The notes beneath the pieces are model-generated. The model saw nothing but the letters and a program-made list of their open reading frames with translations. It did no database searches and was not told the DNA's origin. 34,520 bases of DNA, from NCBI GenBank assembly GCA_038881895.1, contig JAVZOV010000004.1, positions 1-34,520 on the forward strand, read 5' to 3'. Both the position numbers and the translations under genes were made by a program. Origin of the DNA: Thermoprotei archaeon (lineage in GTDB: Archaea > Thermoproteota > Thermoprotei > Gearchaeales > WAQG01). Positions 31,901 to 34,520 of this stretch are shown here, in pieces (position 1 is the first letter of the stretch; each line of letters opens with the position of its first letter).

Positions 31901-32213
31901 ACACACTGCAGAATACCTTATGGAGCATGGAATAGATAACATAAAAATTGTTTACAAATTTCACGAAAAAGCGAGACACCCTAACATCAGCGAATACCTC
32001 AAAGAGAGATTAATAGATTTAGTAATCAATATACCAAGCTCATTATCACTTGAGAAATACTCAGTAATGCTAGAAGATGAACACATAATAAGAAGACGCG
32101 CAATCGAACTGGGAATACCTGTCATAACGAACATTGCTACAGCAGAGGCATTTATAGAAGGTCTCAAATGGCTAGCATCAAAAAACCAACTAACAAATTT
32201 AATTAAGAATTAA
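28962..32213 (+). CDS. carB: Carbamoyl-phosphate synthase large subunit
   Basis: It makes carbamoyl phosphate from bicarbonate, ammonia and two ATP. Two homologous halves are present. The first starts VLVLGSGAIKIGEAGEFDYS with the ATP-grasp signature YPVIIRVAFTLGGKGGG. The second starts near residue 565 (KVIVLGAGPYRIGSSVEFDW) with YPILVRPSYVLSGAAMKVVW. VIEVNPRMSRSSALASK and VIECNLRASRSMPFVSK are the paired metal loops. The oligomerisation region lies between the halves, and an MGS-like allosteric domain forms the last 150 residues. Length is 1083, as for full-size CarB. The gene is co-translated with carA and convergent to the sRNA downstream. Confidence 0.98.
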   Translation: MPKKTNIRKVLVLGSGAIKIGEAGEFDYSGSQCLKALREEGIKTILVNPNIATIQTDENMADKIYFLPVTPEYVEEAIKKERPDSIILTFGGQTALNCGIKLAKMGILDNYNVKVLGTSIETIENASDRERFKKVMIEAGLPVPRSKSAHSLEEAKIAAKEIGYPVIIRVAFTLGGKGGGVAKNEEELINIVEKGLAHSLIKEVLIEEYLGGLKQIEYEVMRDYEDNCIVVCNMENVLGMRVHTGDNIVVAPSQTLNNREYHILRSAAIKAARALNVVGECNVQFALDPNTNKYYVIEVNPRMSRSSALASKATGYPLAYIAAKLALGYTLPELINNVTGITTAAFEPALDYIVIKIPRWDFKKFPRVDRKLRTQMKSVGEVMAIGRRFEEALQKAVRMLDIGLDGLVANYNDDEASLERIKEMLTNPTDEILLYIVRALKKGLSIEEISKLSEIDPWFINKIKNIVDMEKELLSLKEKINNVDEKTLYHIIKKAKQLGFSDKQIAKCLGSSEESIRNLRKKLNINPVVKQIDTLAAEWPAKTNYLYITYNGDFDDTDFISSKRKVIVLGAGPYRIGSSVEFDWCTMNMVWALKAEGFDETIVINCNPETVSTDYDMSDKLYFEELTLERVFDIYEKEKPDGIVVNVGGQTANNLAPKLAKWGARILGTDSNNIDKAEDRAKFSQLLDVLNIKQPPWKEFTTLEEAQYFAQKVGYPILVRPSYVLSGAAMKVVWTPTQLKQYILEATKISHEHPVIISKFFTNSMEIEVDGVSDGENIVIGSIIEHVEPAGVHSGDAIMVIPPIRITQKIREKIIEYTIKIAKALNIKGPFNIQYLAKNDDVYVIECNLRASRSMPFVSKTTDINLMKLAAHVLVEKKLPNSINMKTKTRFSVKVPQFSFMQLDGTDPILSVEMQSTGEVACFGDDFHEALTKALIAAEYKMPKLGGNIFVSVGDKELKEKILKIALELKKMGYNIIATEHTAEYLMEHGIDNIKIVYKFHEKARHPNISEYLKERLIDLVINIPSSLSLEKYSVMLEDEHIIRRRAIELGIPVITNIATAEAFIEGLKWLASKNQLTNLIKN

Positions 32214-32221
32214 TAAAAAAG

Positions 32222-32290
32222 ACAGCACCTTCAGCTCTCCCAGGAAACGTCATCAACTCAGACACGTGAGACAGGCTCATCATCAGGCAA
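32222..32290 (-). ncRNA. C/D box small RNA with two guides (predicted 2'-O-methylation guide)
   Basis: Read on the minus strand: box C ATGATGA (32283-32277), a 15-base guide, box D' CTGA (32261-32258), two bases, box C' TGATGA (32255-32250), a 15-base guide, and box D CTGA (32234-32231). The C and D boxes are exact and the two guide lengths are equal. Flanking GCC and GGT can pair weakly to close the terminal stem. A run of six T follows (32220-32215), and an AT-rich, TATA-like stretch precedes it. Guide one, between C and D', contains GCCTGTCTCACG, complementary to the conserved CGUGAGACAG of the 23S peptidyl-transferase region as I remember it. I could not assign the second guide. The D'-C' spacing is unusually short. 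Confidence 0.78.
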
Positions 32291-32438
32291 TACTAAAAAT
32301 TAAAATAAACATAAATAAATTTATTGGACAAGAAGAGCAGAGTGTGTCATAAAGCCCTTCAAGCAATGAGAAAGGTACACTGACCAGTGAAAATGCTTAA
32401 AGAGAACCAGTTCTTTAGAGTAAAGGAGGACAGAAAAT

Positions 32439-32471: not shown

Positions 32472-34520
32472 ATGACTAAAGCTGTAATAATGGCTGGTGG
32501 TGAGGGTACCAGGCTTAGGCCATTGACAATTAATAGGCCTAAACCTATGGTACCATTCTTTAATAAGCCTTTAATGGAATATACTATTGAGCGTTTATAT
32601 GAATCCAATTTGAGGGACATTTATGTTACTTTACATTATCTTCCTGTTGTTGTTACTGGATATTTTGATGATGGTTCTAGGTGGAATGTACGTTTAAAAT
32701 ATTCGATTGAAGATAGACCTTTGGGTACGGCTGGTGGTGTGAGGGTTATATTTGATGAATTAGATGACACGTTAATAGTGGTTAGTGGTGATCTGCTTTC
32801 CGATATTGATTTGAGCAGCATGCTTAATTTTCATAGAAGTAAGGGTTCAGTTTTTACGATGGCTTTGATTACTGTCGAGAATCCATTAGAATTTGGTGTG
32901 GCATTGCTTGATCATGAAGGGAGGTTAAAAAAATTTGTTGAGAAACCAGGATGGGGTGAAGTATTCTCTAATACTGTAAATGCAGGTGTATATATAATAG
33001 AGCCAGAAATATTAGAGCTAATTCCCAAAGGATCGGAGTTTGATTTCAGTCGTGATTTGATACCTCTTTTGCTTAAAAGAGATTATCCAGTGTATGGTTA
33101 CATTCATAATGGATACTGGAAGGATATTGGAAACACTGAGCAATATAGAAAAGCTCATGAAGAATTGTTAGATAATTTAAAAGGAATTAGAGTAGTATCT
33201 AAGCCTTTTGATGATAAGATATACATTGGAAGTGAATGTTCGATAGATTCAACAGCAACAATAATAGGACCTGTTCTAATAGGATCTAACGTAACGATTA
33301 AAGAAAACACAGTTATAGGACCATACGTGGTAATTGGTGATGACGTGATCATAGAAAGAAGTACAAAGATAGAGCACAGTATTATATGGAATGGGAGTTT
33401 TATTGGTTCACGTTCTCAATTGAACGGATCAATAGTTGGAGAGCGTGTCACTATGAAGTCAGGTGTATATGCCTATGAAGGATCCGTAATTGGTGATGAG
33501 TGTGTAATAGGTAATGATGTAATAATAAAGTCTAGTGTTAAAATTTGGCCAAAGAAGAATGTCGAATCAGGCCTTGTTATTAGTTCGGATATAACTGCGG
33601 GCATTAAAAGTGTTAAAAAGTTGTTCGGTATGTATGGTATTAATGGTGTGGCTAACATAGAAATGACACCCGAGCTTGCATCAAAAATAGGTGCCGCATT
33701 AGCTACTATAGTAAAACCAGGTTCTGTGGTCACGACAAGCAGGGACATGATGAAAGCATCAAGAATGCTTAAAAGAGCTTTTATTGCAGGTCTGCTATCC
33801 GCAGGCATTAATGTATATAATTTAAGAGCTGTGCCATCCCCGATTACTAGACTTTTCGTTGTACAGTCTTCATCAGAATATGGTGTTCATATTAGGATGC
33901 ATAACACATTACCAGATATCATGCGCATTGAGATCTATGATTCAAATGGACTTAATATTAATCCAACTGTGGAAAGAAAGATAGAGAATCTGGTTTACAG
34001 AGAAGATTACAGAAGAGTAGATTACAATATGGTTGGTGATATATATTATCCATCTCGAGTTTATGAACCTTATGAAGATTATATTTATAAATCTATCGAT
34101 ACTTCATCCTTGCGTAAATGGCATGAAAAAGTAGTTATTGATTTGGGCCAAGGCACAGCTTCCCTTATCCTACCGCAGCTTCTTAGCAAATCGGGTATAG
34201 ATACAATTTTAATAAACTTAGCACCTGAAATCAGTTATAGAATTAGTGAGAAGAGAAGTGAACTAAGTTCTTTTATGCATAAAGTTGTGCAATCAACGGA
34301 AGCCAAGGCTGGATTTATAATTGATCAAAGCGGTGAAAGGTTATTGATTGTCGATGAAAAAGGAAGAACCTTAAGCGGGTTACAGAGTCTTATGTTAATG
34401 ATAATGATTGCCCCCGACTTTAATATAACTAAATTTGCCATTCCAATGAGTGTATCTAGCGGTATCGATGAGTTTGCAGACAAATACAATATTTCTTTAA
34501 TAAGAACTGATACTTCATCT
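32472..34520 (+). CDS. Sugar-phosphate nucleotidyltransferase fused to a phosphomannomutase-like domain (partial at window end)
   Basis: It probably makes or regulates GDP-mannose or a similar nucleotide sugar. The N-terminal 235 residues are a nucleotidyltransferase with AVIMAGGEGTRLRPLTINRP and KPMVPF, followed by GTAGGVRVI and VVSGDLLSD. Residues about 245-365 are hexapeptide repeats of a left-handed beta helix (IGPVLIGSNVTIKENTVIGP). From about 380 onward comes an alpha-D-phosphohexomutase-like region (VVTTSRDMMKASRML). Its phosphoserine loop is degenerate: near residues 472-482 the usual TASHNP reads IRMHNTLPD, with no serine. Similar fusions annotated as mannose-1-phosphate guanylyltransferase with an inactive mutase domain are known in bacteria. 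The frame is still open at 34520 after 683 codons. Confidence 0.9.
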   Translation, partial: MTKAVIMAGGEGTRLRPLTINRPKPMVPFFNKPLMEYTIERLYESNLRDIYVTLHYLPVVVTGYFDDGSRWNVRLKYSIEDRPLGTAGGVRVIFDELDDTLIVVSGDLLSDIDLSSMLNFHRSKGSVFTMALITVENPLEFGVALLDHEGRLKKFVEKPGWGEVFSNTVNAGVYIIEPEILELIPKGSEFDFSRDLIPLLLKRDYPVYGYIHNGYWKDIGNTEQYRKAHEELLDNLKGIRVVSKPFDDKIYIGSECSIDSTATIIGPVLIGSNVTIKENTVIGPYVVIGDDVIIERSTKIEHSIIWNGSFIGSRSQLNGSIVGERVTMKSGVYAYEGSVIGDECVIGNDVIIKSSVKIWPKKNVESGLVISSDITAGIKSVKKLFGMYGINGVANIEMTPELASKIGAALATIVKPGSVVTTSRDMMKASRMLKRAFIAGLLSAGINVYNLRAVPSPITRLFVVQSSSEYGVHIRMHNTLPDIMRIEIYDSNGLNINPTVERKIENLVYREDYRRVDYNMVGDIYYPSRVYEPYEDYIYKSIDTSSLRKWHEKVVIDLGQGTASLILPQLLSKSGIDTILINLAPEISYRISEKRSELSSFMHKVVQSTEAKAGFIIDQSGERLLIVDEKGRTLSGLQSLMLMIMIAPDFNITKFAIPMSVSSGIDEFADKYNISLIRTDTSS

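What the first reader, a model, noticed from the sequence alone, without database searches (positions are those of the whole stretch)
32222..32290. Well-formed C/D box sRNA tail-to-tail with carB, one guide aimed at the ribosome catalytic centre
All four boxes are readable in order on the minus strand: C ATGATGA, D' CTGA, C' TGATGA, D CTGA. Both guides are 15 bases, and a T6 run lies at the 3' end. The D' guide pairs over at least 10 bases with CGUGAGACAG of 23S rRNA, recalled from memory, just before the A2602 region (E. coli numbering). The box-plus-five rule would point to the G in the CG step preceding UGAGACAG. The second guide has no target I can name. The two-base D'-C' gap is shorter than usual.
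Basis: partly seen in the sequence, partly recalled or inferred. Interest (0 to 1): 0.62.

Follow-up and report, generated by a model that had tools for sequence, protein, structure and literature searches.

The report
Archaeal C/D guide RNA aimed at 23S
Between two genes of a little-studied heat-loving archaeon lies what is very probably an ordinary small guide RNA of the C/D box class, which should direct a methyl group onto one nucleotide of a hairpin at the protein-making centre of the ribosome; it is a well-formed new example of a known kind, with slightly unusual proportions.

Summary
On the minus strand, 32283-32231 reads C ATGATGA, 15-nt guide, D' CTGA, C' (T)TGATGA, 15-nt guide, D CTGA. 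A short terminal stem flanks it and a T6 run follows. The strict four-box layout did not occur in 12 simulated genomes. Many Rfam archaeal C/D models align to exactly this stretch, all below their cut-offs. Adjacent fibrillarin and Nop5 genes are present.

Against the organism's own 23S rRNA, the D' guide makes 11 contiguous Watson-Crick pairs plus one G-U. The box-plus-five rule selects E. coli G2595, first base of the GUGA loop of helix 93 in the peptidyl transferase centre. The D guide has no rRNA or tRNA target.

No orthologue was found in the order or class. However, two separate C/D RNA families in the same class aim at the same hairpin, predicting A2598 and U2596. This supports the target.

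Caveats: both guides are 15 nt (usual 10-12), the D'-C' gap is short, the three box-proximal guide bases do not pair, and no transcript or methylation data were available. Verdict: a new member of a known kind; modest interest.

The parts
32284..32289 (-). 5' flank TGCCTG, containing the 5' half of the terminal stem (UGCCU pairs with AGGUG)
   Evidence: GCCU/AGGU also paired in the free fold
32277..32283 (-). box C, ATGATGA (matches RUGAUGA)
   Evidence: Rfam C/D models align over 32228-32287
32262..32276 (-). D' guide GCCTGTCTCACGTGT, 15 nt; positions 4-14 upstream of D' pair Watson-Crick with 23S CGTGAGACAGG, position 15 G-U
32258..32261 (-). box D', CTGA
32250..32256 (-). box C', TTGATGA (hexamer TGATGA perfect; first base U instead of purine)
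32235..32249 (-). D guide CGTTTCCTGGGAGAG, 15 nt, no rRNA or tRNA target found
32231..32234 (-). box D, CTGA
32225..32230 (-). 3' flank AGGTGC, 3' half of the terminal stem
32215..32220 (-). T6 run, likely U-tract terminator directly after carB's end on the other strand
   Evidence: role inferred from general knowledge of archaeal termination
32311..32322 (-). A/T-rich TATA-like stretch AAATTTATTTAT about 21-31 nt before the presumed RNA start
   Evidence: inferred, no archaeal promoter model was run

Best explanation
This is a gene for an archaeal C/D box sRNA of about 65-75 nt. Its C/D k-turn and C'/D' k-loop bind L7Ae, Nop5 and fibrillarin. The D' guide pairs with the 3' half and loop of helix 93 of 23S rRNA (E. 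coli 2594-2605) during ribosome assembly, and fibrillarin 2'-O-methylates the nucleotide paired with the fifth guide base from box D', G2595, the first base of the GUGA tetraloop. The D guide is an orphan. Shown: boxes, terminal stem, complementarity to the organism's own rRNA, presence of fibrillarin and Nop5 genes. Inferred: transcription, RNP assembly, methylation, and any effect on folding or stability of the peptidyl transferase centre.
For: Four near-perfect boxes in order in intergenic DNA. 0 such layouts in 12 simulated genomes. A dozen archaeal C/D Rfam families align over 32228-32287, minus strand, best E 0.012; accepted-looking C/D RNAs of related genomes also score below the Rfam cut-offs. 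11 Watson-Crick + 1 G-U pairs with own 23S across the +5 position, above the 9-pair criterion of PMC4644070. Only candidate of 47 to reach 9. The target folds as a hairpin with a GUGA loop. Fibrillarin (PF01269, 324 bits) next to Nop5 (PF01798, 246 bits). Two separate C/D RNA families in the same class guide to the same loop, with predicted sites A2598 and U2596. Helices 90-93 are a known archaeal methylation hotspot (PMC4644070).
Against: No orthologue in 81 class genomes by pattern or BLAST. Guides of 15 nt against a stated usual 10-12 (PMC7994747), and a D'-C' heptamer gap of 1 nt where clear C/D RNAs of relatives have 3-4. The three guide bases next to D' do not pair, so only one pair lies between the target base and the box-side end of the duplex. 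The free fold of the RNA is no better than shuffles, which is usual for this class. No expression or methylation data.
Confidence: 0.7

Rival explanations
1. It is a real C/D box sRNA that binds helix 93 but does not methylate efficiently from the D' site. The 3-nt unpaired stretch next to D', the long guide and the tight k-loop leave it as a folding chaperone or a guide in decay, while the D guide's target is unknown.
For: Positions 1-3 of the guide are mismatched. Guide length 15 and a gap of 1 nt fall outside the values of nearby C/D RNAs. PMC4644070 describes chaperone-type and non-productive pairings, and PMC7089733 cites best activity with an 8-10 bp duplex.
Against: The pairing meets the published criterion of at least 9 Watson-Crick pairs spanning +5, with a Watson-Crick pair at +5 itself.
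Confidence: 0.2
2. Chance: C/D-like letters in AT-rich intergenic DNA with a fortuitous 11-base match to a conserved rRNA segment.
For: Partial C-D'-C' patterns occur by chance about once per genome and did so twice here. 11-base rRNA matches upstream of CTGA occur at about 0.7% of sites. No orthologue was found.
Against: The full four-box layout has expectation near 0 (0 in 12 simulated genomes) and coincides with the rRNA match, terminal stem, T-run and intergenic position. Other families guide to the same loop.
Confidence: 0.05
3. The D' guide acts on the neighbouring 23S site 21 nt upstream (own 2776-2790, GAACGTGAGATGGGT), pointing at the base equivalent to E. coli G2574, instead of or as well as G2595.
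For: A 13-base run of pairing there, of which 3 are G-U.
Against: Fewer Watson-Crick pairs (10 of 13) and more than the two G-U pairs allowed by the published criterion.
Confidence: 0.05

Closest known systems
Archaeal C/D box sRNAs (sR families; Rfam snoPyro_CD RF00095, sR12 RF01147)
   Same: Box order, box sequences, terminal stem, two guides, rRNA target by the +5 rule; models align end to end
   Different: Guides 15/15 instead of 10-12; D'-C' heptamer gap 1 nt; scores below Rfam gathering cut-offs; guide sequences unrelated to those families
Helix-93 guide sRNAs of PMC4644070 (Pca sR30, Tte sR152, Sac sR13, Mka sR3, Neq sR10, Iho sR6)
   Same: Target the same helix at the peptidyl transferase centre
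   Different: Those aim at the base of the helix (E. coli C2606; Pca sR30 also alignment position C2864, about C2590). This one aims at the loop base G2595, which the main text does not list; its supplements could not be read
C/D sRNA of same-class genomes with D guide GCCTTGTCTCACG (L228, L229, L230, L231, L235-L237)
   Same: RTGAKGA-GCC(T)TGTCTCACG guide unit against the same 12 rRNA bases
   Different: The guide is the D guide and abuts the D box directly, so the +5 base is A2598; the window's RNA has three extra bases (TGT) before D', moving the site to G2595

Membership tests
archaeal C/D box guide sRNA | Box C RUGAUGA and box D CUGA near the ends | tested here: met
   ATGATGA 32283-32277; CTGA 32234-32231
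archaeal C/D box guide sRNA | Internal D' CUGA and C' RUGAUGA | tested here: met
   CTGA perfect; C' TTGATGA, 6 of 7
archaeal C/D box guide sRNA | Terminal stem next to C and D that closes the k-turn | tested here: met
   UGCCU/AGGUG, short, with G-U pairs
archaeal C/D box guide sRNA | Guide with at least 9 contiguous Watson-Crick pairs to rRNA spanning the +5 nucleotide | tested here: met
   D' guide: 11 pairs, 23S G2595; D guide: none; one functional guide is sufficient
archaeal C/D box guide sRNA | Usual spacing (guides 10-12 nt; D'-C' gap about 3-4 nt); descriptive rather than defining | tested here: inconclusive
   15/15 nt and gap 1 nt; relatives show 11-16 nt guides and gaps of 3-4
archaeal C/D box guide sRNA | Rfam gathering score of a C/D family | tested here: inconclusive
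   Best 22.8 bits against a cut-off of 45; C/D RNAs of relatives also fall below their cut-offs, so the families are too guide-specific to decide
archaeal C/D box guide sRNA | Protein partners encoded (fibrillarin, Nop5, L7Ae) | tested here: met
   Fibrillarin and Nop5 adjacent at G000:C1:432080; L7Ae not searched
archaeal C/D box guide sRNA | Stable transcript bound by L7Ae/Nop5/fibrillarin; methylation of the target | not testable with these tools
   No RNA or methylation data available

The most novel reading that the evidence does not exclude
A guide has slid by three bases. A 3-nt insertion (TGT) between a conserved helix-93 guide core and its D' box moved the predicted methylation from A2598 (as in related genomes) to G2595, the first base of the GNRA-type loop of helix 93, giving this lineage a ribosome modification not found in the papers read here.
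Probability: 0.25. Interest if true: 0.4.

Novelty: new member of a known kind. Interest (0 to 1): 0.25.

Why it matters
If correct, it adds a predicted 2'-O-methylation at a loop base of helix 93, beside A2602 in the peptidyl transferase centre. It also shows several unrelated guides in one archaeal class converging on one hairpin at different bases (2595, 2596, 2598). That fits the published view that archaea conserve methylated regions rather than single sites. It changes no existing picture of how C/D RNAs work.

Tried and rejected
Orthologue search: the guide-plus-C-box pattern in order and class and BLAST with 81 bases in 81 class genomes found only the window. The best partial BLAST hits were protein-coding stretches, e.g. 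an ABC-transporter Walker B motif in G004. The frequent phylum match TGTCTCACGACGGTCTGA is the antisense of 23S itself, not a guide. The carB neighbourhoods looked at in related genomes showed no such RNA. A target for the D guide was sought in 16S, 23S, spacers and 40 tRNAs; the best Watson-Crick runs were 7. Coding potential: only 26-28 aa ORFs. A hairpin terminator was not found.

Full report
What is there. On the minus strand, between carB (CDS ends at 32213 on +, Pfam CPSase large chain) and a sugar-nucleotidyltransferase/phosphomutase gene (starts at 32472 on +), the sequence reads TGCCTG-ATGATGA-GCCTGTCTCACGTGT-CTGA-G-TTGATGA-CGTTTCCTGGGAGAG-CTGA-AGGTGC, followed two bases later by TCTTTTTT. 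The outer flanks can form a 5-pair terminal stem (UGCCU/AGGUG), and four of its pairs appear even in the free fold. Only ORFs of 26-28 codons overlap it.

More than chance. In order-5 Markov genomes of the same size, the strict four-box layout occurred 0 times in 12 genomes, and the looser C-D'-C' pattern 1.25 times per genome. In the real genome the looser pattern occurs three times; the two others have no rRNA complementarity. Rfam finds no match at its gathering cut-offs in the window. In a permissive search of the 331-base stretch, about a dozen archaeal C/D families (snoPyro_CD, sR12, sR48, sR18, sR21, sR41 and others) align to the same 60 bases on the same strand, best E 0.012. C/D RNAs found in related genomes also fall below the cut-offs, so the cut-offs reflect guide-specific models.

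Target. The organism's own 23S and 16S genes were found. The D' guide pairs with 23S CGTGAGACAGGT by 11 contiguous Watson-Crick pairs and one G-U. Numbered against E. coli rrlA, this is 2594-2605, and the fifth base from D' is G2595. The local sequence GACCGUC-GUGA-GACAGGUC folds as helix 93 with a GUGA loop and the A2602 bulge. So the predicted site is the first base of that loop, and the guide covers the loop and the 3' strand including A2602. The match exceeds the published criterion of 9 Watson-Crick pairs spanning +5 (PMC4644070). By itself an 11-base match is not extraordinary: 0.2% of random genomic 15-mers, 1% of shuffled guides, 0.7% of CTGA-adjacent 15-mers. Jointly with the boxes it is. 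The D guide has no Watson-Crick run above 7 in rRNA, spacers or 40 tRNAs. Orphan guides are common: 28% of guides in Pyrobaculum, as cited in PMC7994747.

Machinery. A fibrillarin gene (324 bits) lies directly next to Nop5 (246 bits) in this genome. L7Ae was not searched.

Relatives. Neither a C-box-plus-guide pattern in 81 class genomes nor BLAST with 81 bases found an orthologue. However, a phylum scan for the guide core beside CTGA led to two other C/D RNA families in the same class. One reads GTGATGA-TGCGTGGCAGCAA-CTGA-GTA-GTGAGGA-GCCTTGTCTCACG-CTGA (L228, L229, L236, with variants L230, L231, L235, L237). The other reads GTGATGA-CTGTCTCACGAC-CTGA-GACC-ATGATGA-...-CTGA (L232, L234). By the same rule they point to A2598 and U2596 in the same GUGA loop. 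L238 (GCCTGTCTCACA-CTGA) also points to A2598. The helix-93 loop is therefore a repeated target, which supports the window's RNA. The literature already describes helices 90-93 as a hotspot, with sites at the base of helix 93 (PMC4644070); G2595 is not mentioned in the main texts read here.

What is unusual. Both guides are 15 nt, against 10-12 stated as usual (PMC7994747) and mostly 11-13 in nearby C/D RNAs. The gap from D' to the C' heptamer is 1 nt, where relatives have 3-4. The three bases next to D' (TGT) do not pair. Removing them would give a 12-nt guide of the relatives' type aimed at A2598 (compare), so a 3-base insertion that slid the site is possible. But the shared letters are all dictated by the rRNA, so common descent is not shown. 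The tight loop and unpaired box-proximal bases could weaken methylation, hence the chaperone or decay rival.

How it most likely works. [quoted passage not shown] all steps after the sequence evidence are inferred). The gene probably has its own promoter, because it lies between two genes on the opposite strand: an A/T-rich stretch precedes it and a U-tract follows. Neither was tested beyond inspection.

Verdict. This is a new member of a known kind, with mild structural oddities and a plausible but unproven site at the peptidyl transferase centre.

Noticed in passing
L228, L229, L230, L231, L235, L236, L237 (same-class genomes): Conserved C/D sRNA family with D guide to 23S A2598. The D' guide probably faces the A-loop near U2552, clearest in L231 (GGGCAGCC), weak in the others.
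   Followed up: partly
L232, L234 (same-class genomes): Second C/D sRNA family whose 12-nt D' guide pairs 10-12 bases with helix 93 and points to U2596.
   Followed up: partly
L251, L255, L263 (same-order genomes G002, G001, G003): Conserved canonical 12-nt-guide C/D sRNA whose D' guide points to U2552 in the A-loop.
   Followed up: partly
L265 (same-family genome G004, contig 128, 3210-3241, minus strand): Double-guide C/D sRNA with two 11-pair matches to 23S sites 29 bases apart and a GGGGC/GCCCC terminal stem.
   Followed up: partly
L272 (own genome, contig 5, 58262-58290, minus strand): Probable second C/D sRNA of this organism: terminal stem GCAGC/GCTGC, slightly degenerate C box, D' guide with 8 pairs to 16S around 1382-1389.
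   Followed up: partly
L001 (own 23S), A-loop GGGCTGCTCGCCC: C at E. coli position 2554 with U at 2555, the CU variant that PMC9976906 reports as typical of Nitrososphaeria rather than Thermoprotei.
   Followed up: no
L243 about 2860-2930 (G003 contig 3): A stretch with 23S-like letters CCCTATCTGCCGTGAG and an inverted repeat CGTGAGA/TCTCACG next to CTGA; not a C/D RNA, nature unclear.
   Followed up: no
L239, L240 (same-phylum genomes, family f17): Two loci share TTTGTCTCACGA[GT]CTGAG with imperfect C-like boxes upstream; the +5 base would be U2596. Status as a C/D RNA uncertain.
   Followed up: no
window 1024, minus strand: TTGATGA-13 nt-CTGA with a 10-base match to 16S, but inside the ORF at 953-2566 and without a C' box; probably chance.
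   Followed up: partly
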